From Collinsella sp. AM18-10 (GTDB lineage: Bacteria > Actinomycetota > Coriobacteriia > Coriobacteriales > Coriobacteriaceae), in assembly GCF_003471585.1 (NCBI RefSeq), contig NZ_QRJO01000009.1:1-64000 (forward strand): a DNA stretch of 64,000 bases, written 5' to 3'. Below are positions 1,595 through 62,124 of this stretch, in pieces. Under the pieces are notes generated by a model. That model had not been told where the DNA came from, did not search any database, and saw only the letters and a list, made by a program, of their open reading frames with translations. Both the position numbers and the translations under genes were made by a program. Each line of letters starts with the position of its first letter. Positions within the stretch are counted from its first letter, which is position 1.

Positions 1595-2082
1595 CCCGCC
1601 ATCAAATACCTCGCACCCATCCCTCAGCAGATTCAGCCTCGGCCTTCAAACTAGGCGACCACACCGACATGCACAACGTCTGCGGGCTCATCGAGATCGG
1701 TGAGCCCACTTTCCGCAATCTGGTTGCCAAAAGCTCCACATTAATGATTGCCCGTATCGACATTGCGATCGATGTACGGTCAGGGAGTGTTGATAAAAAG
1801 TGACTTAATGCTTGACGTGTGAAGACGTAAAAGCCTGTATTCCAAATAAGGTGGGATCAAGCGTGTGCGTCGGCTTCTTGGCAAGCAGAGCAATGGGCGT
1901 ACAGGATGTTATGCAAGAAATAGCGATGACAGAGGCACGCAAATAAGGTCGTGGATAGCAGCTCTCAATGGCCCCAAATTGCAACTAGCTTAAGGGCGCA
2001 TCGAAAAACATAGCTGTACGAATGCAGTCAGGACCATAGTGAAACCCGATACCATGGCTACCAAACCGCAGCAGGCTCAGCA
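1595..2082 (+). other. Intergenic stretch with short degraded coding fragments
   Basis: No intact gene is seen. Three plus-strand pieces look like protein remnants: an open frame to 1803 containing GDHTDMHNVCGLIEIGEPTF, one ending near 1946 with VGFLASRAMGVQDVMQEIAM, and a short one ending near 2087. None has a convincing start. The pieces suggest decayed genes at the edge of the restriction-modification island. No family is assigned. Confidence 0.3.
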
Positions 2083-2856
2083 CTAGTTGACAGTCCCCTT
2101 TTTAATGTGACACTCGATGCCGTGATCAAAACAAAAATCACGGACTTCCCTTGCACTATCACGATAGAAGCGGGCGCAGTCGTCGTAGGAGCTTGTTAGT
2201 CTGTCATAGTGCGTCCTGCCAAAAACAATTTTATCGACAAAAGAGATCTTGCGCAGCAGCGCATCCAAATCTTGCTCGCAGATATTTGGAGTCGGATATG
2301 GCTCCATGCTAACCCAAGTCTTACAGCCAGCCTTATGGAGAGACTCGAGAGCGGCAAGCCTGACTGAGTATGCCGCCGCACCGGGTTCCATCCTTTTCCG
2401 ATTGTCCTCATCAAGCGACACCAAGGTAATTCCATAGGTGTTCAACGTCGCATTAGGTAACGCCGCAAGTTCAACGGGAAGCTCTCCTTTCGTTAGAATG
2501 CTGCACGGCTTACCGTACTCGTTAATGAGCCCAATTGCACCCAAGCTCATACTGCCAACTTCTGGATATCCGAGCATAAAAGGATCGGTTGTAAAGCACA
2601 GTTGAACCTGTTTTATCTCATCACAATAACGCGGCAACTCCTTGCGCAGCAGATCCAAAGTGTTGTCGACAAGGCTCGGCCGCCGCCATTCCTCGTATGT
2701 TTTGACACGCCCAAAACGTTTTGCCATTAAATATGCATAGCATGGGAAATTGCATCCATGCGAACAGCCTTGCACATGATTCATCGCCCAATCGCCATAT
2801 TCAACTTTTGTACGGTAGAGCATACTTTTTCGATATATGTGCCCAAGTTGTTCCAT
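2083..2856 (-). CDS. Radical SAM-like protein with CX3CX3C motif (TcmP partner)
   Basis: A 257-residue protein with a cysteine cluster C31-SHG-C35-NFP-C39, then YAYLMAKRFG, as in SPL/DUF5131-like radical SAM proteins. The spacing CX3CX3C differs from the canonical CX3CX2C. Downstream segments fit a TIM-barrel radical SAM fold (QVQLCFTTDPFMLGYPE, WVSMEPYP). It lies 61 bases after tcmP and is last in the restriction operon; the TcmP family name refers to a neighbour carrying a three-Cys motif. Substrate and reaction are unknown. The region is visibly AT-richer than hsdR. Confidence 0.65.
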   Translation of the reverse strand: MEQLGHIYRKSMLYRTKVEYGDWAMNHVQGCSHGCNFPCYAYLMAKRFGRVKTYEEWRRPSLVDNTLDLLRKELPRYCDEIKQVQLCFTTDPFMLGYPEVGSMSLGAIGLINEYGKPCSILTKGELPVELAALPNATLNTYGITLVSLDEDNRKRMEPGAAAYSVRLAALESLHKAGCKTWVSMEPYPTPNICEQDLDALLRKISFVDKIVFGRTHYDRLTSSYDDCARFYRDSAREVRDFCFDHGIECHIKKGTVN

Positions 2857-2917
2857 TGTTCTTTAATTCTCTTCTCGCTGAACTTCCTCACACCAAAGAT
2901 ACGACCGACCTAAGCAC

Positions 2918-4144
2918 TCATCTTGCTCGATAAACCTCGTCTTTGAGCGCAAAGCTCTTTTTTGGCTTTCCTTTCAAAGTGAACTTGACCGCACGCTCAA
3001 GAATACCTTCCTCAATCATTGGGCCCACATAGGTCTTCAAAATAGTATTGCTTCTGTCAAAGACTCCGCACTCGGAAATCAACGTGGCAGCAATATCACC
3101 CATTTTCATGTTTTGGTGAACGGGCATATGCTGGACAAAATCACGGGCCTTGGCCGCAATTACGGCAGTCTCAACATTGCGACCATCAACATCCACCGCA
3201 AACAATCCCAACTGCTTGCATTGCCAGTCGAAGTTGCGCTTAATCATGTTATCGTTCATCAGAACGCAACCGTCTGGGCTATTGGTCATATGGATCATTC
3301 TATATTTGACGAGCCCACCGACATTAACGCGTTTACTCATATCTTTGATAGGCATATTCGTTACATACTTATAGTAAGAACGCGCGTTGTTGCAAAAGAG
3401 TTCCGAGAGCGCATGTTCAGCCTGCCAAGCGTCGATCTTTCCAGCCTTATAACGAACGACCACTTCTTTCCAGTCGCCACTTCCGATGCAGGCATTCAGA
3501 CGTTCAACCCAAACGCTGGCTTTCGTGAGCTCATTAAAGTCGTCTTCCGGCAGTTCAACTTCATTTGGAAGTGACAGTGGCACTTTCATGGCAGCGCAGG
3601 CAACGCGGAATAAGCCAAAACTATTGAAGTTGACCAGGGCCTCCGTGTGAGCCATATTCGGCGAATTAGTTAGAAGATCGAGTCGTAGGTCTTTAACCCC
3701 GAATGGATCGATGTAATAGAAGACTGTTGAGGGCTTACCGCCCCCACAAATGCTAGTTTGTTGTGCCTGTCTTATAGCATCCTCGCAACTGGAAACGATA
3801 ATTGGCGGCTTGATATAGCCGCTAGCTCCCTTTGCTTCGTTAAATGTCGATTCGAGATGCTTTCTAGATTCCGCGTTGGATTCACTAAGAATGAACTGGA
3901 TGGGCGTCTTTGAACGATTTTTCTTTGCAATTGCAAAATACTTAGAAAGGGCAATCAAGGGAGATCCTTTACTGCCATCGGCAAATAAACCCGCACCAGC
4001 AAAAGCATCGATATAAAGAATGCCGTTCCGTGAAGGTCGATACACTTTAGTGAAAAAAGGCGTTAGATAGCATGCCAGAAGATCATCCTTAGTCTCAGAC
4101 CACGGATGTTTTGCCTGAAAGTAATCTGACTGGTTTTTTGCCAT
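2918..4144 (-). CDS. tcmP: Three-Cys-motif partner protein TcmP
   Basis: A 408-residue protein recognised as TcmP-like. The N-terminus contains KHPWSETKDDLLACYLTPFF and then a Rossmann-like methyltransferase signature: YIDAFAGAG (about 44-52), GSPLIAL, FILSESNAE, and YYIDPFG (about 138-144). The C-terminal part looks like a winged-helix region. The biochemical role of the family is not established. It starts 32 bases after the hsdR stop and is followed by its presumed radical SAM partner, so both probably travel as cargo of the restriction operon. Base composition is lower in GC than hsdR and hsdM. Confidence 0.7.
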   Translation of the reverse strand: MAKNQSDYFQAKHPWSETKDDLLACYLTPFFTKVYRPSRNGILYIDAFAGAGLFADGSKGSPLIALSKYFAIAKKNRSKTPIQFILSESNAESRKHLESTFNEAKGASGYIKPPIIVSSCEDAIRQAQQTSICGGGKPSTVFYYIDPFGVKDLRLDLLTNSPNMAHTEALVNFNSFGLFRVACAAMKVPLSLPNEVELPEDDFNELTKASVWVERLNACIGSGDWKEVVVRYKAGKIDAWQAEHALSELFCNNARSYYKYVTNMPIKDMSKRVNVGGLVKYRMIHMTNSPDGCVLMNDNMIKRNFDWQCKQLGLFAVDVDGRNVETAVIAAKARDFVQHMPVHQNMKMGDIAATLISECGVFDRSNTILKTYVGPMIEEGILERAVKFTLKGKPKKSFALKDEVYRAR

Positions 4145-4176
4145 GCTAAGCCCACCTTGCTCTTAGTCCTCATCGT

Positions 4177-7100
4177 CTACTTGAATTTCTCAACCAGCAG
4201 CTGCCCGATGGCGCTCATCATGGCGCGATACTTCTCACTGTCCTCAAAGAGGCTAGTAAAGGAGTCCGTGTTCTCCACATAGGCGCGGCGAGCCTCCTCA
4301 TCGAACACCTTGGGCAGCAGGCTTGATTCGAAGACCTGCCTGCCATCGCGACGGATGGTGTCGGCGACCTGCGGGTTTTCGGCGATACGCTTCCACAGCG
4401 TGTCGATAACCACACGATCTCCCTCGGTGAAGTTGCCAGCCCACTGCTCGTTGAACTTATCCACGAGCGCCTGCAGCGGGTCGCGCTTCTTGTCGGGCGT
4501 CAGGGTCTTGGCCGCGCCACCGGGATCGAGCACGCCACCGCCAGGCTCAAGCGAAATGCTGCCCTCGAACTCCTGCTTGAGCTTGTAGAAGCGCATCTCG
4601 ACCTTGTCGTCCACAGCCTCGACGGGGATCTTCTCGACCTTGAGGAGGTGGCGCAGATAGCTTAAATACACGTACTCCTTATGTAGGTCTCGGTCAAACA
4701 TGCGAACAATCTGGGTGATGTAGGTGTACCACTTGCAGAAGCTTCGCACCTTACGGCGCACCTGATAGCGCGAGTCGTCATCCAGCTCGTTGTAGCGCGA
4801 GACCGCAGGCTTCAAAACGGCAGCAAGCTTGCCCTGCACGTTGCCCTGCGACTTACCCTTGTCATCCGTGAAGACTATCTCGGCAGCGGCCTCGATGTCA
4901 GACTCGTCATAGAGCCCGTAGCCGCGAATATCGGTCTGCACCTGATAGAGGAGGTCGGTGTTAATCTGCTCGGAGAGTGACGTCTCGGTATAGAAGCGCT
5001 CGAACGCCTTCTGGATGTCCTCGGGCTTGTTCACGAAGTCGAGGATGTAGGTGTCCTCCTTGTCCGGGTGGATACGGTTGACGCGGCAGAGCGTCTGGAC
5101 CGCCTTCACGTCCCTGAGCTTCTTGTCCACCACCAGCGTGTGCAGCAAAGGCTCATCGAAGCCCGTCTGGTACTTCTCGGCGACGACGAGCACGTCACCA
5201 TAGTTATGAAACTCGGCCTTCGTTTGGCTCTCGGCGACTCGTTGTCCATCGTGGCCGACGTTGATAGACGGCTCGGTGTACTCGGGACCGCCGGGGCCAT
5301 CCGTAGGGTCGCTGATGGCACCCGAGAACGCCACCAGCACCTCGATGTCGTCGTAGCCCTTCTTCTGCATGTAGCGCTTGATCTCGTGGTAGTAGCGGAC
5401 CGTCGCGAGGCGCGACGCCGTGACCACCATCATCTTGCCCTTGCCGCGGATTTTGGTGCGTGTCACGTTGCGGAACGTCTCCACGATGATCTCGGCCTTC
5501 TGGCCGAGGGCATAGGGGTGCAGCTCCTTATACTTGCGGAGCAGTTTGAGCGTGGGACTGCTCGGCACATCGGGGTTGTCGGGGACCGTGCGCGCAAGCT
5601 CGACGGCCTCCGAATAGCTCACGTAGTTGGCGAGGGGGTCCATGATGAAGCCCTCCTCGATCGCTTGGCGCATCGAGTAGATATGGAACGGATGGAAGGT
5701 CCCGTCGGGCCACTCGTCGCCGAACATCTCGAGCGTCTGCTCCTTCGGCGTGGCGGTGAAAGCCACGAAGGTCAGGTTCTTGTGACGGCCGTGGCTCGCG
5801 AGCTCGTCGGCGAGCTGGTCCTCCCAATCGGCCGCAGCCCCCTCGGCTTCCGCTTCGATCTCAGCGTACTCCTCGAGCGCGTCGCGCTTGTCGGCAAGAG
5901 CGCTCTTGAGCTTGAGCGCACTCGTTCCCGTCTGGGATGAGTGAGCCTCGTCGACGATGATGGCGAAGCGCTTGCCCTTGCTTTCGACCTGCTCGTAGAT
6001 CACGGGGAACTTCTGCAGGGTCGAGACGATGAGACGAGCGCCGCCGTTGATGGCGTCCCGCAGATCGGCCGAAGTCTTGTCCTTGCCGATGGTCACGACC
6101 GAGCCTATGGCGTGGTCGAAGCCCGAGATGGTCTCCTGCAGCTGGCTGTCGAGCACTCGGCGGTCGGTGACGACGACCACGGAGTCGAGCAGCGGGGTGT
6201 CATCCACGAAGAGGGATGCCAGGCGATAGGCCGTCCAGGCGATGCTATTCGACTTGCCCGACCCCGCCGAATGTTGCACAAGGTAGTTCTTGCCCGTCCC
6301 GTTCGCGCGTACGTCGGCGATGACCTTACGCACGGAGTCGAGCTGGTGGTAACGGGGGAAGATAATGCGCTCCTTCTTGCGCTTCACCTCGTTGCCGTGC
6401 GCATCGAGCTCCGTCTCTTCCTTGACCTCCAGGTGGAGGAACTTGTTGACGATGTCGAGCAGGCTGTCCTTCTGTAGAGCGACCTCCCACAGGTGACTCG
6501 TAGCATAGCCGTCGGGATTTGCGGGGTTGCCGGCGCCGCCGTCGTTTCCCGCCCCGGCTGAGCCCTGATTGAACGGCAGGAAGAAGGTCTTCGCGCCCTC
6601 TAGCTTGGTGGTCATGTAGACATTTTCGAGATCGACGGCGAAAAAGGCCACCATGCGCGTGTTGAACTTGAGGCAGCGGCACCGCGAGTCGCGGTCCTCG
6701 CGCCACTGGCGCATCGCGTTCTCGACGTCCTGACCGGTGAACTGGTCCTTTAGCTCTATACCCACCAGGGGGATGCCGTTCACATCCAGGACCATGTCGA
6801 TGGTCTGGTTGCCCGTCTCGGCGAAGTGGAACTGGCGAATGCAGCGGCAGACGTTCTTGACATAGCGATTGGCGGCGCTTTCGTTAAGCCCGCTCTCCGG
6901 CTTGAAGAATACAACCTTGAAAGGAATTCCTCGATGCTTGAAGCCGTGTTTGAGCACCGCGACTATACCCAGGCGGTCGACGGCGTCGTTGAAGACCTTG
7001 GCGAACTTCGCCGTGGGATCGGAGTTGCACATGCGCTCGAAGCGCTCCCAAGCCTTGGGCTGCGTCGTCTGGATAAAGTTGACCAGGGTGGCGGCGTCGA

Positions 7101-19420: not shown

Positions 19421-19493
19421 GGGCCGCTGAACGGCGACTCGCCGCGTCGCATCTTGCCAATCTGGGACATGCTTTCCCAGCAGCCACGCTGGC

Positions 19494-19895
19494 GGAAAGC
19501 GCGTCCCAGTCTGGACGCTCAAAACGGGACGCACTTTCCGGATGGTAGGCCTAACGGAAAGCGTGTCCCAGAATGAACGCTCAAACTGGGATGCAGTTTC
19601 CAAGTGAACGACAACCGGAAAGTGCGTCCCATTCCAGGTGCGGATTCCGGGATGCACTTTCCGTTTGAAGCTCCAACCGGAAAGCGCATCCCACTCTGGA
19701 GCCGAATTCCGGGACACGCTTTCCGCTAGAGGATCAAAAGGAAAATGCGTCCCATTCTGAACATCGATTCTGGGATGCAATTTCCGTCGAGGGCTCCAAG
19801 GGGAAACTGCATCCCACTCTGAGCATCGATTCCGGGACACAGTTTCCGCTCCAAACAAAAGACCCCGGCTCACGATGGAGCTGGGGCCAAAGGCG
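19494..19895. repeat. Palindromic array 3: six 46-bp units plus tail
   Basis: Units start at 19494, 19556, 19617, 19679, 19740 and 19802, a period of 61-62, with 15-16-base unrelated spacers. A partial unit precedes them near 19470. The last unit is followed by CTCCAAACAAAAG and a GC-rich hairpin (CCCCGGCTC / GAGCTGGGG), the same tail as at 16128. The array fills the gap between the AbiEi-like gene and the xanthine dehydrogenase 3' end. Confidence 0.85.
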
Positions 19896-34378: not shown

Positions 34379-34594
34379 TCTCGATCTGTAACAGCTAAAG
34401 CCCATTTTGCGGTCCATCTGTTACAGATCGAGACATTCGAATCCCCTCAAGGGAATAATCTCAATCTGTAACAGTAACTCGGCAAAATCAGTCCCAGATG
34501 TTACAGATTGAGACAAAGGGACGGCGCGGTTCGTAAGTATCTCGATCTGTAACACCTAGCCCACTTTTTACGGTCCAGTTGTTACAGACTTAGA
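34379..34594. repeat. Three 55-bp inverted-repeat units
   Basis: Units at 34379-34433, 34459-34513 and 34540-34594 each have arms TCTCGATCTGTAACAG and CTGTTACAGATCGAGA (minor changes in units 2 and 3) around a 23-base centre. The centre contains GCCCAYTTT..CGGTCCA in units 1 and 3. The stretch 34345-34739 has no gene. Confidence 0.85.
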
Positions 34595-42073: not shown

Positions 42074-42685
42074 TTAGGCCATACGGATGGCGACGAGACC
42101 ATTCTTGGCACCCGGGACAGCGCCCTTGACCAAGATGAGGTTCTGCTCGGCATCGATGCGGACAACGGAAAGGTTCTTGACGGTAACGCGCTCGTTACCC
42201 ATGTGACCGGCCATCTTGACGCCCTTGAGGACGCGCGCAGGATAGGCGCACTGACCGATAGAACCGGGGTGACGCTGGAAGTGAGAACCATGCGTCATAG
42301 GACCGCGGCGCTGACCCCAGCGCTTGATGCGACCCTGGAAGCCCTTACCCTTGGAGGTACCGATGACGTCGACCTTCTCGACATCAGCGAAATCAGCGAC
42401 GGTGACGACCTCGCCGACCTTGTGCTCCTCGCCGTTCTCGACGCGGACCTCACGAAGGAAACGGACAGGCTCGACGCCAGCCTTGGCGAAGTGACCAGCC
42501 ATGGGCTTGTTCACGTTCTTGGCCTTGATGTCGCCGAAACCGATCTGGACGGCGTCATAGCCGTCGGTTGCCTGAGTTTTAACCTGCGAGACAGCGCAGG
42601 GGCCAGCCTGGATGACCGTGACGGGAACGACGTTATCGTTCTCGTCCCAAACCTGGGTCATGCCAATCTTGCGGCCGAGAATCAT
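42074..42685 (-). CDS. rplC: Ribosomal protein L3
   Basis: 203 residues from ATG 42685 ([20 protein letters not shown]); a TTG three codons upstream is a weaker alternative. It has [15 protein letters not shown] and [15 protein letters not shown]. It is first gene of this operon because rpsJ lies elsewhere. The ribosome site is weak. Confidence 0.96.
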
Positions 42686-42877
42686 GCTGATCAAGATATG
42701 ATCCCAACTCTCGCGTGGTCTTGGGACAATGCGTACACCACCGAGCGTACGCCCCTAGAGGACCACTACTTACACGACGTGCTCCCCAGCCTTGTATTGT
42801 GTCCGAACTACCTGACAACCCTATTAAGCAGGCATTTTGTCCAGCCAGAATACTCCCCTGGTTTCACACAGCTGTTT

Positions 42878-42883
42878 AGTATA
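42878..42883 (-). promoter_or_regulatory. Candidate -10 element of the rplC operon promoter
   Basis: TATACT on the minus strand about 190 bases upstream of rplC; no good -35 is visible. The leader 42686-42870 contains a GCGTAC/GTACGC hairpin that could be regulatory. Confidence 0.4.
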
Positions 42884-42955
42884 CACGGCTGCGGGCGTAT
42901 CCATCGAGATTCATATTTCACTCACATTGTTTACGCAGGTAAAGTGCGTGGATGG

Positions 42956-43106
42956 CTCCCGAGCACGGCGGAGGGCCGGTGAAATATATTAAGGTCCCTG
43001 CTCTACAGTCCTGCGCAAGACGGAGAGCACATTAAGTGCTCTCCTTTGCGTGCGGAACTCGCGATGCCCTTAATATATTTCACCGGCCCTCCGCCGTGCT
43101 CGGGAG
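42956..43106. repeat. Giant intergenic hairpin element 1
   Basis: The 39-bp arms (42956-42994 and 43068-43106) are perfectly complementary. They enclose a core with CTGCTCTACAGTCCTGCGCA and the tip hairpin GGAGAGCAC-ATTAA-GTGCTCTCC. The core is shared with elements at 48723, 50900 and 61864; the arms are not. It lies between the histidine phosphatase 3' end and the rplC promoter region. Confidence 0.9.
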
Positions 43107-43144
43107 ACGACACGTTGATGTCTGCTTAACTCTGCTCGCTCAGG

Positions 43145-43771
43145 CTAATGACTTTGTTGGGGATCCACTATTTGTTGGAGGGTGAACTTGCATTGATGTG
43201 GTTCGCCTTCTGCTTGTGGCGTGAACTCTTCAAAATCAAAAATCATGATGGCGCAGTTGGGAAGTTTTGCTGGGAGTTTGAAGTCCTCTGGAGCGGCGGC
43301 TTTGATGAATTGGCGGCTGGCGCTGCCGTGGCTTACTGCTAGGAGGGTTTCGATGCCCTCGGCGCCCATGAGATTGGTGAGGGTGGCTACCATGCGCTCC
43401 TGCAGGGCATGACTTCCTTCTCCTCCGAAGGGGACCAGGTCCTCGCCCGGGTCCCAGACGTCGGTGGGCAGGGCGTCGTGGGGGCCTTCTTCGAAGGTGC
43501 CGTAGCTGCGCTCGATGATGCCTTCGCAGGGCTCGACTGCTGCGTCCGGGCCAAGGAGTTCGGTAGCGACGAGCTGAGCTGTGTCCATGGCCCGGCCTAA
43601 GGGCGAAGAGACCACTTTATCCGGGAAGACACCGTGGGCTTTGAGCCATGCGGCTGCCGTCCGTGCCTGCTGACGGCCCAGGTCGGTCAGCGGTGAATCG
43701 CAGCGGCCCTGGACCAGCTTTTTAACGTTAAATTCCGTCTGACCGTGGCGGAGTAGATACAGCTTCGTCAT
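43145..43771 (-). CDS. Histidine phosphatase family protein
   Basis: 208 residues with the phosphohistidine motif YLLRHGQTEFN (His about 9), VSSPLGRAMDTAQLVA, and a second His in AVSHGSAS. Members are phosphoglycerate mutase-like or small-molecule phosphatases; the substrate is not determined. It follows the cation efflux gene by 39 bases, so probably one transcript. Confidence 0.88.
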   Translation of the reverse strand: MTKLYLLRHGQTEFNVKKLVQGRCDSPLTDLGRQQARTAAAWLKAHGVFPDKVVSSPLGRAMDTAQLVATELLGPDAAVEPCEGIIERSYGTFEEGPHDALPTDVWDPGEDLVPFGGEGSHALQERMVATLTNLMGAEGIETLLAVSHGSASRQFIKAAAPEDFKLPAKLPNCAIMIFDFEEFTPQAEGEPHQCKFTLQQIVDPQQSH

Positions 43772-43810
43772 GCTCTCCCCTTCTGCTTCAGTTACCTTGC
43801 CGGCACAGCC

Positions 43811-44965
43811 CTACTCGTGGGTATGGCCGACATAGTCCTCGTCGATCGTGATCTTGGCGACCGACTTGGGATATTCCGATTCGACCCTCTGGGCCAACGC
43901 GTTTTTGAGCTCATCGGCTCCCATGCCCAAATCCGAGGGTCGCACGCAGTCAAAAATCACATTGGTGTGCGTGGGGCCCGGTACGCAACGCAAGTCGTGA
44001 ATCGAAAGGCGGCTATCAATCTCCTGAGCCATGGCGTTGATGCGCAGGCGCATGCTCGCCACTTTGGTGTCGTCGGTCACGATGGGGTCGTAATGGAGCG
44101 TGACGATCATGCCTTCTTCGTTTCTAAACGACTGCTCGATGTTATCGAGCGTGTCGTGGCTTTCCAGCGGGCTGGTCTCGGCTGCCATCTCGGCGTGGGC
44201 GCTCGCAAACTTCCTGCCCGGACCGTAATCGTGCACCATCAGGTCGTGGACGCCCAAAACGCCAGGATAGCTCATGATCTTATCTCGGATATGCTTGACC
44301 AGTTTGGGGTCGGGCGCCTGGCCCAAAAGCGGGCTCACCGTATCCTGGATAAGCTCAAAGCCGCTCCAGCCAATATAGGCGCCAACGGCAAGTCCAACCC
44401 ATGCATCAAGATTGACATGCGTCACCTGTGAAATAATCGCGCATACCAGCACAGCGCCCGTGGCAAGGACATCGTTCTTGGAATCCTGAGCGGTCGCATG
44501 CAGTGTCTCGGACTCAATGCGATCGCCGAGCTTTTGGTTGAGGGCCGCCATCCACAGCTTTACGACCATCGAAAGCACTAGAACCGCCACCAGAGCAAGC
44601 GAGAACTCGACAGGCTCGGGGTTGATAATTCGCTCCACCGAGGACTTCACCAGCTCAACACCAATCAGCAGCACGAGCGCTGCCACGACCAGACCCGAGA
44701 GATACTCGTAGCGGCCATGGCCGTAAGGATGCTCGGGGTCTGCTGGCTTGCCCGCCAGCTTAAAGCCCAGCACGCTCACGATGTTCGAGCTGGCGTCGGA
44801 CAGGTTGTTCATGGCATCCGCCACGATCGAAACCGATCCCGACAGCACACCGATTGCGCCCTTCGCAGCGCAAAGTGCCACATTGGCAAGAATGCACACC
44901 ATGCCCGTCAACGTGCCCACACGTGCACGGTCGCCCTGCGCTCGTTTAACAATCCACTCGACCAT
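43811..44965 (-). CDS. Cation diffusion facilitator transporter
   Basis: A 384-residue CDF efflux protein with about six N-terminal membrane helices, the metal-site pattern DAMNNLSDASSN and HATAQDSKND, and the family signature HPYGHGRYEYLSGL. A cytoplasmic C-terminal metal-binding domain follows, with an extended region after residue 290. It exports Zn2+, Mn2+ or similar. It ends with HTHE. Confidence 0.9.
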   Translation of the reverse strand: MVEWIVKRAQGDRARVGTLTGMVCILANVALCAAKGAIGVLSGSVSIVADAMNNLSDASSNIVSVLGFKLAGKPADPEHPYGHGRYEYLSGLVVAALVLLIGVELVKSSVERIINPEPVEFSLALVAVLVLSMVVKLWMAALNQKLGDRIESETLHATAQDSKNDVLATGAVLVCAIISQVTHVNLDAWVGLAVGAYIGWSGFELIQDTVSPLLGQAPDPKLVKHIRDKIMSYPGVLGVHDLMVHDYGPGRKFASAHAEMAAETSPLESHDTLDNIEQSFRNEEGMIVTLHYDPIVTDDTKVASMRLRINAMAQEIDSRLSIHDLRCVPGPTHTNVIFDCVRPSDLGMGADELKNALAQRVESEYPKSVAKITIDEDYVGHTHE

Positions 44966-45045
44966 CTCTACCTGCCCCCAACAGCTTTACTCATACACCG
45001 TTTGTCGAATAGCTCAGTAGTGTAGACCCTTTACCCCATCGATAC

Positions 45046-45079
45046 AAAAAAGGCCGCAACCCAAAGGGCTGCGGCCTTA
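45046..45079. terminator. Terminator of the str operon
   Basis: The stem AAGGCCGCA-CCC / GGG-TGCGGCCTT is followed on the minus strand by TTTTTT. It lies 26 bases after the rpsJ stop. Confidence 0.92.
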
Positions 45080-45104
45080 TCAATCGTGCGATCGAGCAAA
45101 AAAC

Positions 45105-45413
45105 TTAGAGCTTGATGTCGATGTCGACGCCAGCGGGGAGGTCGAGACGCATAAGCGAATCAACGGTGCCCGAGGTGGGGTCGAGGATGTCGATGAGACG
45201 CTTGTGGGTGCGCATCTCGAACTGCTCACGGGAGTCCTTGTTCACGTGCGGCGAGCGGATAACCGTGTACAGGTTGCGCTCGGTGGGCAGGGGGACAGGA
45301 CCGGAAACGCGAGCGCCGGTCTTCTGAGCGGTCTCGACGATGAGCTTCGCGGACTGATCGACGACCTCGTGATCATAGCCCTTGAGGCGAATGCGGATCT
45401 TCTGGGTAGCCAA
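45105..45413 (-). CDS. rpsJ: Ribosomal protein S10
   Basis: 102 residues, [20 protein letters not shown] with [20 protein letters not shown]. The start codon is TTG with GAGG upstream, unusual for a ribosomal gene. It follows fusA directly; tuf is missing between them. Confidence 0.97.
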
Positions 45414-48639: not shown

Positions 48640-48722
48640 CAGACCACGCCGCCGGGCGTATCCCAAAATTGGCACATTTCCGCAAAGCCTACACAAAAGG
48701 AATCCCCTCCTGTGCACGGGGG

Positions 48723-48863
48723 CGGATTCCCGGCCCGGGCGGCCCGCCGTTTAAGTTTGCTGCTCTACAGTCCTGCGCAAGACGGAAAGCACATTAAGTG
48801 CTTTCCTTTGCGTGCGGAACTCGCGACAAACTTAAACGGCGGGCCGCCCGGGCCGGGAATCCG
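48723..48863. repeat. Giant intergenic hairpin element 2
   Basis: The 37-bp perfect arms (48723-48759, 48827-48863) begin CGGATTCCCGGCCCGGGCGG. The core has CTGCTCTACAGTCCTGCGCA and the tip GGAAAGCAC-ATTAA-GTGCTTTCC. Flanks AAAAGGAATCCCC (left) and GACGTGCTCGTCGGGGCAAC (right) are also shared with element 3. It lies between the anti-sigma gene terminator and the str promoter. Confidence 0.92.
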
Positions 48864-49164
48864 ACGTGCTCGTCGGGGCAACGTTACCTGCCAAAAAGGG
48901 AAAGGTTTGTTTTGGTCGGTTTTATCTGCGGAAACGTCGCGCTCCAGCGGTGATCCGCCCTCATCTGTCATAGGGAAATCGGTGGCGCTTTCGGAAGTAT
49001 GCGGCAAATTCTGGACCTGCCGAGCACGCCGGGGTTTTGCGATAATAAACCCGCAGGTAGAGCGCTTGAGTATATGCGGTGTGGTCGGCCCATCGAGATT
49101 TTGCCGCATACTTCCGAAATTCAGGCGAATATCGCTCAAAATAACCGTCCATATAACGCAAAAT

Positions 49165-49193
49165 AGGCCGCTTCCCCTAGTGGGAAGCGGCCT
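49165..49193 (-). terminator. Terminator after anti-sigma gene
   Basis: The stem AGGCCGCTTCCC / GGGAAGCGGCCT is followed on the minus strand by ATTTTG, directly after the gene's stop. Bases 48864-49164 contain no supported gene. Confidence 0.8.
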
Positions 49194-49199
49194 CAAGTC

Positions 49200-50276
49200 T
49201 TACGAGTAGACGATGGTAAAGGGTACTTCTGTTTCGGTCTCTCCTGTTGATGTGCACCTCGTTCCCTCAAGGGTTACCGATACAACCTGATCGACATTGA
49301 TGAGCCTTGCCGGAACCCAGATGTTCTCTCCGCTATTGCGCGCCATCGAAACATAGAAATTGAACGCCCCTGCGTCGTCATCTTCGATAATCTGCTCCGA
49401 TCCATCCTTGTAGGTAACCGTCAACTTCTTCGTGACTGCGTCAATGCCCAGATCATCGATGTGCGTCTGGATGGAAAACGGGCTGATCTCGAGAGGCGAG
49501 TCATCGGAGCGGAGTTCCTTAGTATCGACGTACGCTCCAACGCTAAACTCGGGCGTCGATGCCTCGAACGGCTTCGCATCCTCTCCTTCGCCCTCGGTCC
49601 ACGAGATATTCCAGGTGACCGCATGTTGAAAACCTCGCTCGCGATCCATAGAAGCAAAGTACATCGTGCCATTAATGACAGTATCGCTTGATGTGTCCTT
49701 ATCAATGGTGCAGCGTGTATCAGCCCATTCCTCGCCGAAGTTCATGCTGGGTGTACCGATGCCTTGTTCTTCTTCACCATAGAGAACAAGTTCGCCTGTC
49801 TCTGCTGCCGGCTTGTAGTAGTTAACACCATTTGGATTGGACAGCGTAAACGTCACAGCACCGCAGCCGTTTTGGTCGATAGCCATATCATGAATGTCGA
49901 GTGTATAGCCGTTGCCCTCGACGGACAGATTGACCTTCTGTACTGAACCCTCCAAGCTTTGGGGCGCGATACCATCACCAAACTCTCTGGTGTAGGTATA
50001 TTTAGTCCCCGACGAGCCACCTTGAGTCCAGGTAACGGACTCTCCGTTGCCATGGTTTCCCCAGGCAGAGGCAAAATAACTGGAATTGACAACAGCGTAG
50101 GCGACCCCTCCGGTCGCCAGCACTCCGGCAAGACATCCGATTACGGCAACATACAGAGGCTTCGCGTGACCCTTTCGGCGAAGAGGCTCGCCAGCAACGG
50201 CATAAAGAACACGGTCAGCAAGATCGCTATCGGCTTGGACGGACTCGAAGGCCTGCTTGATCTGGTTGGATTTCAC
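49200..50276 (-). CDS. Anti-sigma-like membrane protein (DUF4179-like)
   Basis: A 358-residue protein with GTG start and GAGGAGGG site. A cytoplasmic N-terminus of about 40 residues precedes one transmembrane helix (LYVAVIGCLAGVLATGGVAY) and a large extracytoplasmic beta-rich domain. This is the layout of anti-sigma factors. Its 5' end overlaps the sigma gene by 50 bases, so it is the probable membrane-bound inhibitor of that sigma. The signal sensed is unknown. Confidence 0.75.
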   Translation of the reverse strand: MKSNQIKQAFESVQADSDLADRVLYAVAGEPLRRKGHAKPLYVAVIGCLAGVLATGGVAYAVVNSSYFASAWGNHGNGESVTWTQGGSSGTKYTYTREFGDGIAPQSLEGSVQKVNLSVEGNGYTLDIHDMAIDQNGCGAVTFTLSNPNGVNYYKPAAETGELVLYGEEEQGIGTPSMNFGEEWADTRCTIDKDTSSDTVINGTMYFASMDRERGFQHAVTWNISWTEGEGEDAKPFEASTPEFSVGAYVDTKELRSDDSPLEISPFSIQTHIDDLGIDAVTKKLTVTYKDGSEQIIEDDDAGAFNFYVSMARNSGENIWVPARLINVDQVVSVTLEGTRCTSTGETETEVPFTIVYS

Positions 50277-50745
50277 GGTCGCCCTCCTCTAGGATGAATT
50301 TGAGCTTCGATCGACCGCGAGCTAAACGCGTTCGAACGGTCGCGGCTGGCACATGCAGTAACTCGGCAATTTCTGAAGTCGAGAAGCCCAGATAGTAATA
50401 GAGCACGATAGGAATACGGAATCGCTCCGGAAGTCGCATAACGTCTGACAGGACCGCCTTGGTCTCCTCCTGCGCCGTCGAAAGCGAATCGGCCAGATTC
50501 TCAATATCCTCCACGCGCCTCCACGGCTTTCGAAAGAGAGATTTACATTCATTGATCGTGACCCGGATAAGCCATCGACGAAGATGCTCCCAGTTTTCAA
50601 ATTGCGCGTCGCTTTTGAGCAACTTAAGAAAGACGTCTTGAGCGACATCGTCGGCGTCAGCGCGATCACGCAGATACGTCAATGCGATCCGAAACACGAC
50701 ATCCCGGTGGTCTTCGACCGCCTGTCTAAAAGCTTGTTCTTCCAT
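50227..50745 (-). CDS. ECF-type sigma factor
   Basis: A 172-residue sigma-70 family protein from ATG 50745 (MEEQAFRQAVEDHRDVVFRI), with GGGAGG upstream; an in-frame extension to 50871 is AT-rich and not family-like. Region 2 is LTYLRDRADADDVAQDVFLK; region 4 is STSEIAELLHVPAATVRTRL. It overlaps the downstream anti-sigma gene. Confidence 0.9.
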   Translation of the reverse strand: MEEQAFRQAVEDHRDVVFRIALTYLRDRADADDVAQDVFLKLLKSDAQFENWEHLRRWLIRVTINECKSLFRKPWRRVEDIENLADSLSTAQEETKAVLSDVMRLPERFRIPIVLYYYLGFSTSEIAELLHVPAATVRTRLARGRSKLKFILEEGDREIQPDQAGLRVRPSR

Positions 50746-50791
50746 AATCACCTCCCGGTGACGCTGATGGTTCTTGATGAGGTCCTCACCA

Positions 50792-50821
50792 TAGATACGC
50801 TTTGGCCGAACGAAATGTTTC
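50792..50821 (-). promoter_or_regulatory. Candidate autoregulated ECF promoter
   Basis: GAAAC followed 17 bases later by CGTATCTA on the minus strand, about 47 bases upstream of the sigma ATG, resembles ECF -35/-10 pairs. ECF sigmas commonly drive their own operon. Confidence 0.4.
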
Positions 50822-50899
50822 AAATTCAAGTAGGAAAAACCTACCAAAATTAATCCGTCCCTTTTTGGCAAAAGGAATCCCCTTCTGTGCGCGGGGGCA

Positions 50900-51036
50900 G
50901 ATTCCCGGAACGGGCCGCCCGCTGTTTAAGTTTGCTGCTCTACAGTCCTGCGCAAGACGGAAAGCACATTAAGTGCTTTCCTTTGCGTGCGGAACTCGCG
51001 ACAAACTTAAACAGCGGGCGGCCCGTTCCGGGAATC
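50900..51036. repeat. Giant intergenic hairpin element 3
   Basis: The 35-bp perfect arms (50900-50934, 51002-51036) begin GATTCCCGGAACGGGCCGCC. The core is nearly identical to element 2. Arms differ from element 2 at several pairs, always on both sides. It lies between the rpoC terminator and the sigma gene. Confidence 0.92.
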
Positions 51037-51070
51037 CGACGTACTCGTCGGGGCAACGTTCCTCATCAAA

Positions 51071-61721: not shown

Positions 61722-61863
61722 GAGAAGACATATCTACTCGACCACCTCGGCTGGCGGGAAGTCCCATTAAGCTCGCGGGCGATGCCCGTTTGCACCGGCT
61801 GTCTCTGGCAGCGGATTCGTGCGTGAACCGAAAGTATTATGGCGGGGACCCCGGCGTCGGTCA

Positions 61864-62065
61864 ACGGGAAACCGGGCTGCACACAATTCCACCATCCGGC
61901 CGCGCCGCCGAAGGCCAGGCGCAAGGTTTTCGCTCGGTCAGGTCCTGGGCTCGTACGAAGAGCACATTAAGTGCTCTTCGGCTCGTGCGGAATCTACGAA
62001 AACCTTGCGCCTGGCCTTCGGCGGCGCGGCCTGCGGTGACTTTGGGGCAGCCCGGTTTCCCGTTG
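61864..62065. repeat. Giant intergenic hairpin element 4, double-armed
   Basis: The inner perfect 35-bp arms (61898-61932, 61997-62031; GGCCGCGCCGCCGAAGGCCA...) enclose the family tip AAGAGCAC-ATTAA-GTGCTCTT and conserved GTCCTG and GTGCGGAA bases. A second perfect 19-bp stem (CAACGGGAAACCGGGCTGC and its complement) lies outside an internal loop. It lies between the aminotransferase 3' end and the rplJ leader. Confidence 0.9.
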
Positions 62066-62124
62066 GCCGGCGCCCCCACTCATAAGCCTTAAGTCGGTGG
62101 GCTGATATGTTGCGTCCCTGATGG

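What the first reader, a model, noticed from the sequence alone, without database searches (positions are those of the whole stretch)
48723..51036. Elements 2 and 3: same core, arms that covary
Elements at 48723-48863 and 50900-51036 have almost identical cores and flanks and related arms. Where their arms differ (CC versus AA, G versus C, C versus T), the opposite arm changes to match (GG versus TT, C versus G, G versus A), leaving both hairpins perfectly paired over 35-37 bp. Compensatory change is the classical mark of selection on structure, or of a process that copies one arm from the other. The fold is far larger than a terminator, and both are separate from the nearby terminators.
Basis: seen in the sequence. 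Interest (0 to 1): 0.85.

Follow-up and report, generated by a model that had tools for sequence, protein, structure and literature searches.

The report
Gut-bacterial hairpin repeats with copied arms
Collinsella and related gut bacteria carry a few dozen scattered hairpin-shaped DNA repeats that share a conserved tip but have different, closely matching arms at each site; comparing strains suggests that one arm is repeatedly copied from the other, so the matching changes do not by themselves prove a working RNA.

Summary
Elements 2 and 3 have identical 67-nt cores and perfect 37- and 35-bp arms; the four base-pair differences inside are two-sided, and one just outside is one-sided. They belong to a dispersed palindromic family: 24-29 parsed copies in each of three near-complete Collinsella genomes, a core pattern in 128 of 396 Coriobacteriia genomes (some hits are chance), no Rfam match, not Collinsella-1. 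At orthologous sites the arms drift at about 60-80% of the flank rate yet stay complementary. In Collinsella, unmatched changes show no G-U preference (14 G-T, 14 A-C, 20 transversions). A half-swapped hybrid (L408), one inverted core (L387) and one deletion (L141) occur. This fits arm-to-arm copying (template switching or recombination) better than selection for an RNA helix, though imperfect pairs in family f2 lean the RNA way. The conserved core and an element-3 site empty in 9 of 43 genomes suggest a mobile element read by an unknown factor; this is inferred. No Collinsella genome searched has SbcD above cut-off (0 of 35); that link is exploratory.

The parts
48694..48885 (+). Element 2, block shared with element 3
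   Evidence: local alignment E2 48694-48885 with E3 50869-51060
48723..48759 (+). Element 2 left arm (37 bp)
   Evidence: (I4)
48760..48826 (+). Element 2 core: CTGCTC..AGTCCTG-stem-GCACATTAAGTGC-stem-CGTGCGGAACTCGCGA
   Evidence: identical to element 3 core; model R1 92.3 bits (this copy is among the model's 47 sequences)
48827..48863 (+). Element 2 right arm
50869..51060 (+). Element 3, inserted unit; this site is empty in nine related genomes
50900..50934 (+). Element 3 left arm (35 bp)
   Evidence: I7
50935..51001 (+). Element 3 core
   Evidence: model R1 92.1 bits (not itself in the model, but its core is identical to element 2's)
51002..51036 (+). Element 3 right arm
42956..43106 (+). 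Element 1 (arms 42956-42994 / 43068-43106, 39 bp); site filled in the 21 genomes fetched
61898..62031 (+). Element 4 (arms 61898-61932 / 61997-62031, 35 bp), core of another subtype

Best explanation
These are copies of a Coriobacteriia palindromic repeat: a conserved asymmetric hairpin tip (about 64-73 nt in the window, with its own covarying inner stem) between two arms of about 20-45 bp whose sequence is private to each site. Shown: the family is dispersed and conserved in its core; arms at a site drift, and sometimes change wholesale, while staying complementary; a hybrid, a deletion and one core inversion occur. Inferred: mutation, or recombination within the core, first makes the two arms differ; when the region folds into a hairpin or cruciform during replication or repair, one arm serves as template for the other (template switching or arm-to-arm conversion), which restores pairing, occasionally flips the core and occasionally deletes the hairpin. 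The arms are therefore largely sequence-free; the core is kept because some unidentified factor reads the hairpin, most simply the machinery that mobilises the repeat. Lack of the SbcCD hairpin nuclease may be why such palindromes persist in Collinsella.
For: Arm turnover: 139 same-class orthologous pairs show flank divergence 9.5%, two-sided changes at 5.4% of arm pairs (250, of which 230 go from Watson-Crick to Watson-Crick), one-sided at 3.9%; means over 23 loci are 9.95%, 4.4% and 2.95%. A further 109 pairs at 19 loci have a different arm class, 62 of them with flanks at least 90% identical. Inside allele clusters: 28 two-sided and 48 one-sided changes, the latter 14 G-T, 14 A-C, 20 transversions. 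Both-arm block and length changes at one site. Exact hybrid L408, left arm of one allele and right arm of another; L059 similar but for one base. Core inverted in L387 against 8 same-site elements. L141 deletion. Arms do not seem to come from other copies: of 38 cross-site matches 25 were printed, and by eye these are element-2/3-type arms, sites split by truncated flanks, the inverted L387, or short weak matches. Core-free inverted repeats of the same loci also show two-sided changes but fewer (66 two-sided to 165 one-sided, against 250 to 179). Element 3 site: 9 of 43 genomes give full-length empty-site alignments. Template switching is described as causing both arm homogenisation and spacer inversion (PMC8604942, abstract and introduction read) and as maintaining stems (PMC8794818, abstract and opening read).
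Against: No event was watched; all is comparative, and strain pairs are not independent. Inter-strain recombination carrying whole elements can also change both arms at once. Two-sided changes are richer in transitions (23 to 5) than one-sided ones (28 to 20, p 0.04), as a path through wobble pairs would give. In family f2 the unmatched pairs lean to A.C (106 against 31 G.T), which would be G.U in the opposite strand's RNA; 67 of the 106 come from two genomes with shared arm subfamilies, but 39 against 22 remains without them. No enzyme was found: Y1 transposase hits do not track copy number. No target duplication that I could see at the element 3 site, and only that site's empty allele was read. 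No overall orientation bias to replication (58 against 62). The SbcD association comes from genomes that I picked and is confounded by descent (3 of 28 with copies, 11 of 32 without, p 0.037); G051 and G057 have both SbcD and pattern matches, and Collinsella genomes without copies also lack it (G002, G014, G027).
Confidence: 0.57

Rival explanations
1. A structured RNA (3'-end or regulatory): pairing is kept by selection on the transcript, and paired changes arise by ordinary compensatory mutation.
For: Conserved internal-loop nucleotides and covarying stems over three families (26 pairs, 21 with two-sided changes). A.C excess in family f2 equals G.U on the minus strand (106 to 31; 39 to 22 without two genomes). 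Transition excess among two-sided changes. Many Collinsella copies lie near gene 3' ends: 45 of 99 between convergent genes.
Against: In Collinsella unmatched changes are 14 G-T, 14 A-C, 20 transversions, and over all copies 40 G-T against 42 A-C. In the three-family alignment the inner stem has a single G-U cell, with one A-C and one A-G (a lower pair, columns 42-70, has 10 G-U cells). Orientation to tandem genes is even (22 and 21). Length changes on both arms and an inverted core.
Confidence: 0.23
2. A REP/REPIN-type repeat moved by a RAYT (TnpA-REP) single-strand transposase.
For: Palindromes between genes, inverted doublets, a presence/absence site, Y1 proteins with open frames of about 250-350 aa in many Collinsella genomes.
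Against: No core copy in any of 23 loci around Y1 hits (8 of 2.6-3.4 kb, 15 of 5.5-6 kb); G033 has 19 copies and G006 8 copies with no Y1 hit.
Confidence: 0.1
3. An invertible switch (inverton) flipped by a site-specific recombinase at the arms.
For: Inverted repeats around a 64-73-nt spacer; one flipped core.
Against: Arms are not conserved between sites, as recombinase sites would be. Of 603 flank-matched pairs 594 share orientation; 8 of the 9 flipped involve one element and the ninth is a doublet within one locus.
Confidence: 0.04

Closest known systems
Quasipalindrome correction / template switching at inverted repeats (PMC8604942, PMC8794818)
   Same: Arms become identical, several bases change at once, spacers can invert.
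   Different: Described there for scattered short inverted repeats or RNA genes; here it would shape a whole dispersed family with a conserved core and site-private arms of 20-45 bp.
REP / REPIN / BIME elements with RAYT (PMC3116915, PMC8266576, PMC3733652; search listings, and a term search within the last)
   Same: Palindromic repeats between genes, inverted doublets, probably non-autonomous.
   Different: Much longer hairpin, arms not conserved between copies, no linkage to Y1 genes found. The words Eggerthella, Slackia, Atopobium and Coriobact do not occur in PMC3733652's main text (Collinsella was not searched there).
Double-hairpin and palindromic repeats of mitochondrial genomes (PMC2670323, PMC7218506; search listing only, details recalled)
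   Same: Dispersed hairpins thought to be selfish, with variable stems (recalled).
   Different: Organelle; no relation tested.
Collinsella-1 RNA (RF01700)
   Same: Collinsella candidate RNA.
   Different: 1-4 matches in the 23 of 42 Collinsella genomes that have any, and no core motif in the four of its loci that I read.

Membership tests
Collinsella-1 RNA (RF01700) | matches the Rfam model | tested here: not met
   no gathering match in the window; the model's own loci L249-L252 lack the core
REP/RAYT | short 20-40 bp palindrome tagged GTAG or CGTC at one end (title and start of abstract of PMC3733652) | tested here: not met
   hairpins of 108-165 nt; on the complement GTAG occurs inside the CTCTAC core subtype and CGTC inside the GACGG subtypes, not at a palindrome end, and neither in the common CTCGCACG subtype (read by eye)
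REP/RAYT | copies beside a RAYT gene | tested here: not met
   0 of 23 Y1 loci hold a core copy
REP/RAYT | cut by TnpA-REP as single-stranded DNA | not testable with these tools
   needs biochemistry
Template-switch-corrected inverted repeats | arms homogenised beyond independent mutation | tested here: met
Template-switch-corrected inverted repeats | spacer inversion | tested here: met
   one case, L387
Template-switch-corrected inverted repeats | dependence on replication and nuclease genotype | not testable with these tools
   needs strains
Structured RNA family | wobble pairs preferred among imperfect pairs | tested here: inconclusive
   absent in Collinsella, skewed in f2 partly through shared ancestry
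Structured RNA family | is transcribed | not testable with these tools
   no expression data
Inverton | recurrent spacer inversion within a site | tested here: not met
   one inverted element

The most novel reading that the evidence does not exclude
A selfish hairpin of the Coriobacteriia that exists as a single-stranded DNA object: an unknown protein reads the conserved tip, the arms are sequence-free spacer rebuilt by copying, and the repeat persists in lineages without the SbcCD hairpin nuclease. It would be a DNA family whose near-perfect covariation is produced by mutation mechanics rather than by RNA function.
Probability: 0.28. Interest if true: 0.82.

Novelty: new variant of a known kind. 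Interest (0 to 1): 0.63.

Why it matters
Covarying stems are routinely taken as proof of a functional RNA. Here a repeat family with textbook covariation shows patterns better explained by copying between arms, so it is a natural test set for how often template switching imitates structural selection. It also gives many natural replicates (about 25 sites per genome, many strains) for measuring arm homogenisation, core inversion and hairpin deletion in bacteria in which no SbcD was detected. And it is a possible mobile element of human-gut Coriobacteriia for which I found no Rfam match and no description in the searches named under Tried and rejected.

Tried and rejected
Rfam on the window and on element 2 at a permissive threshold: nothing relevant. 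RF01700: different family. Y1/RAYT co-occurrence: no link. Replication orientation: no overall bias (G129 alone 15 to 4). Transfer of arms between sites: not supported. One search used a flank identity that ignored gaps and over-merged loci; its figures are superseded, and one search's class counts. Rows dropped: 23 of 155 copies at locus ends. The A.C excess in family f2 was first read as RNA selection, then weakened because 67 of 106 come from two genomes with shared arms; a smaller lean stays. E2 and E4 composite flanks were printed but not searched. The phylum search with model R1 (stricter filters, at most 14 candidates scored per genome) found E below 1e-8 only in families f1, f2 and f5 (15 genomes), and 3 genomes elsewhere at 8.6e-5 to 3e-4, which I take as chance. 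Of my 32 'without copies' genomes six were also searched with R1; the others rest on the exact pattern alone. Literature: searches that could have shown a description are (11 is on Collinsella-1; 66, 67, 75 on mechanism); I judged the listed papers by title and start of abstract (10 of 33 listed, 8 of 261), and most subscription journals are not held.

Full report
WHAT IS THERE. The window holds four copies of one palindromic element (42956-43106, 48723-48863, 50900-51036, 61898-62031). Each has two complementary arms of 35-39 bp without mismatch around a 64-73-nt asymmetric core. Elements 2 and 3 share an identical 67-nt core and a 192-bp block. The four base-pair differences inside element 3's perfect arms are two-sided; one difference just outside is one-sided. 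Of 20 first-order resamples of the window one had an inverted repeat of 16 bp and the others none of 14 or more.

FAMILY. A DNA search with the core found it in 27 of 58 relatives, all in the same genus. The same exact pattern had no match in viral contigs. A looser core pattern occurs in 128 of 396 Coriobacteriia genomes, up to 30 copies, with 0-2 reversed-pattern matches per genome. Some of the hits are chance: 8 loci that I read (L219-L222, L225-L228) lack the structure. A covariance model from 47 copies of three families, three of which are window copies, gives 85-92 bits for the four window copies and, over 296 genomes of the phylum, matches below 1e-8 only in families f1, f2 and f5. Columns that formed the search pattern are conserved by selection of the sample; conservation outside them, such as the TC of GCTC and the C before AGTCC, is independent. 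Three near-complete Collinsella genomes hold 29, 26 and 24 parsed copies at 33 sites, 18 of them shared by all three.

SURROUNDINGS. With a crude ORF finder that masks the element, 45 of 99 distinct Collinsella copies lie between convergent genes, 11 between divergent genes, and 22 and 21 in the two tandem orientations. A second run with shorter flanks gave 53 convergent, 16 divergent, 15 and 17 tandem, with 35 of 136 unplaced, and in family f2 12, 10, 9 and 9 with 50 of 90 unplaced, so the convergent excess is not evident in f2. Against replication there is no overall orientation bias (58 with, 62 against, five genomes). In family f2 an ACCTG word is enriched just outside the left arm (26 of 90 copies, 5 in a control stretch); C before and T after the arms is the commonest boundary in both groups (40 of 90, 53 of 136), so the unit may be a little longer than the hairpin.

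HOW THE ARMS EVOLVE. Among 136 Collinsella copies at 50 sites, 139 same-class orthologous pairs have flanks diverged by 9.5%, two-sided changes at 5.4% and one-sided at 3.9% of arm pairs. Per base the arms thus diverge at 0.78 of the flank rate, or 0.59 on locus means, while remaining paired: the arms are not conserved in sequence. One-sided changes show no wobble preference: 14 G-T, 14 A-C, 20 transversions in allele clusters, 40 and 42 over all copies. Two-sided changes are richer in transitions, 23 to 5 (p 0.04 against one-sided), which leaves room for some wobble-path selection. Changes of arm class occur between strains whose flanks are at least 90% identical (62 of 109 such pairs), for example at one site 36-bp and 32-bp arms that share outer and inner ends but not the middle. 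At element 1's site the 21 genomes fetched all carry the element, which I sort into four arm classes; the window copy differs from one of them by an A-T to T-A swap on both arms and by one one-sided base next to the core.

INTERMEDIATES. L408 is an exact hybrid: its left arm is that of L074's allele and its right arm that of L039's. L059 has the left arm of one allele and, but for one base, the right arm of another; L008/L050 and L101 look similar (by eye). L387 has the core inverted relative to 8 same-site elements. L141 has lost most of the hairpin. Template switching between inverted-repeat arms is reported to homogenise arms and invert spacers (PMC8604942) and to maintain stems (PMC8794818). 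Core-free inverted repeats in the same loci show the same tendency more weakly (66 two-sided, 165 one-sided changes in 174 pairs; these queries were required to be perfect, which inflates one-sided counts).

MOBILITY. Element 3's site is empty in 9 of 43 genus genomes by full-length alignment. Six genomes hold a different insertion there and G064 holds the same one; G013 and G007 gave right-flank matches but in their fetched loci the left flank was not found, so they were not read. Since elements 2 and 3 share a block beyond their arms, element 3 looks like a recent copy of an element-2-type unit. I saw no target duplication. In one f2 genome (G268) at least eight copies share nearly the same arms, another sign of recent spread. 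No mobilising gene was found.

PERMISSIVE HOST. An SbcD match above the curated cut-off was found in 0 of 35 Collinsella genomes (two have weak partial matches) and in 10 of the 23 other genomes. In 60 genomes that I chose from three families, 3 of 28 with copies and 11 of 32 without have it (Fisher p 0.037; copies defined counts of two or more or one search matches of three or more). Against it: G051 and G057 have SbcD and 3 and 6 pattern matches, and Collinsella genomes without copies (G002, G014, G027) lack SbcD too. This is exploratory and not corrected for descent.

WHAT IS INFERRED. The copying step, the hairpin-reading factor and the selfish nature are inferences. RNA function is not excluded, above all for the core and for family f2, where only 15 of 90 copies have perfect arms and imperfect pairs lean to A.C (106 against 31). 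67 of those come from two genomes with shared arm subfamilies; 39 against 22 remains without them.

Noticed in passing
window 48989-49119: Another inverted repeat (43-nt arms, 84% complementary) next to element 2, without the core.
   Followed up: no
window 61853-61889 and 62038-62074: Outer imperfect inverted repeat (84%) enclosing element 4.
   Followed up: no
window 19458-19848: Cluster of related inverted repeats around a GGGACACGCTTTCCG-like word.
   Followed up: no
window 34379-34513: 55-nt inverted repeat, 73% complementary, with strongly matching ends.
   Followed up: no
L171-L176, element 3 site: A different hairpin insertion occupies the element 3 site in six genomes.
   Followed up: partly
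Collinsella genomes G001-G035: No SbcD match above the family cut-off in any of the 35 (G016 and G018 have weak partial matches).
   Followed up: partly
L054 about 2000-4240: Two inverted copies about 2.2 kb apart flank two ORFs, one reading by eye like a nucleotidyltransferase; in L118 and L146 a similarly placed pair is about 280 bp apart.
   Followed up: no
window 42074-45413: By eye from the ORF list, a phosphoglycerate-mutase-like and a cation-efflux-like gene lie between rpsJ-like and rplC-like genes, splitting the usual ribosomal order (names recalled, not searched).
   Followed up: no
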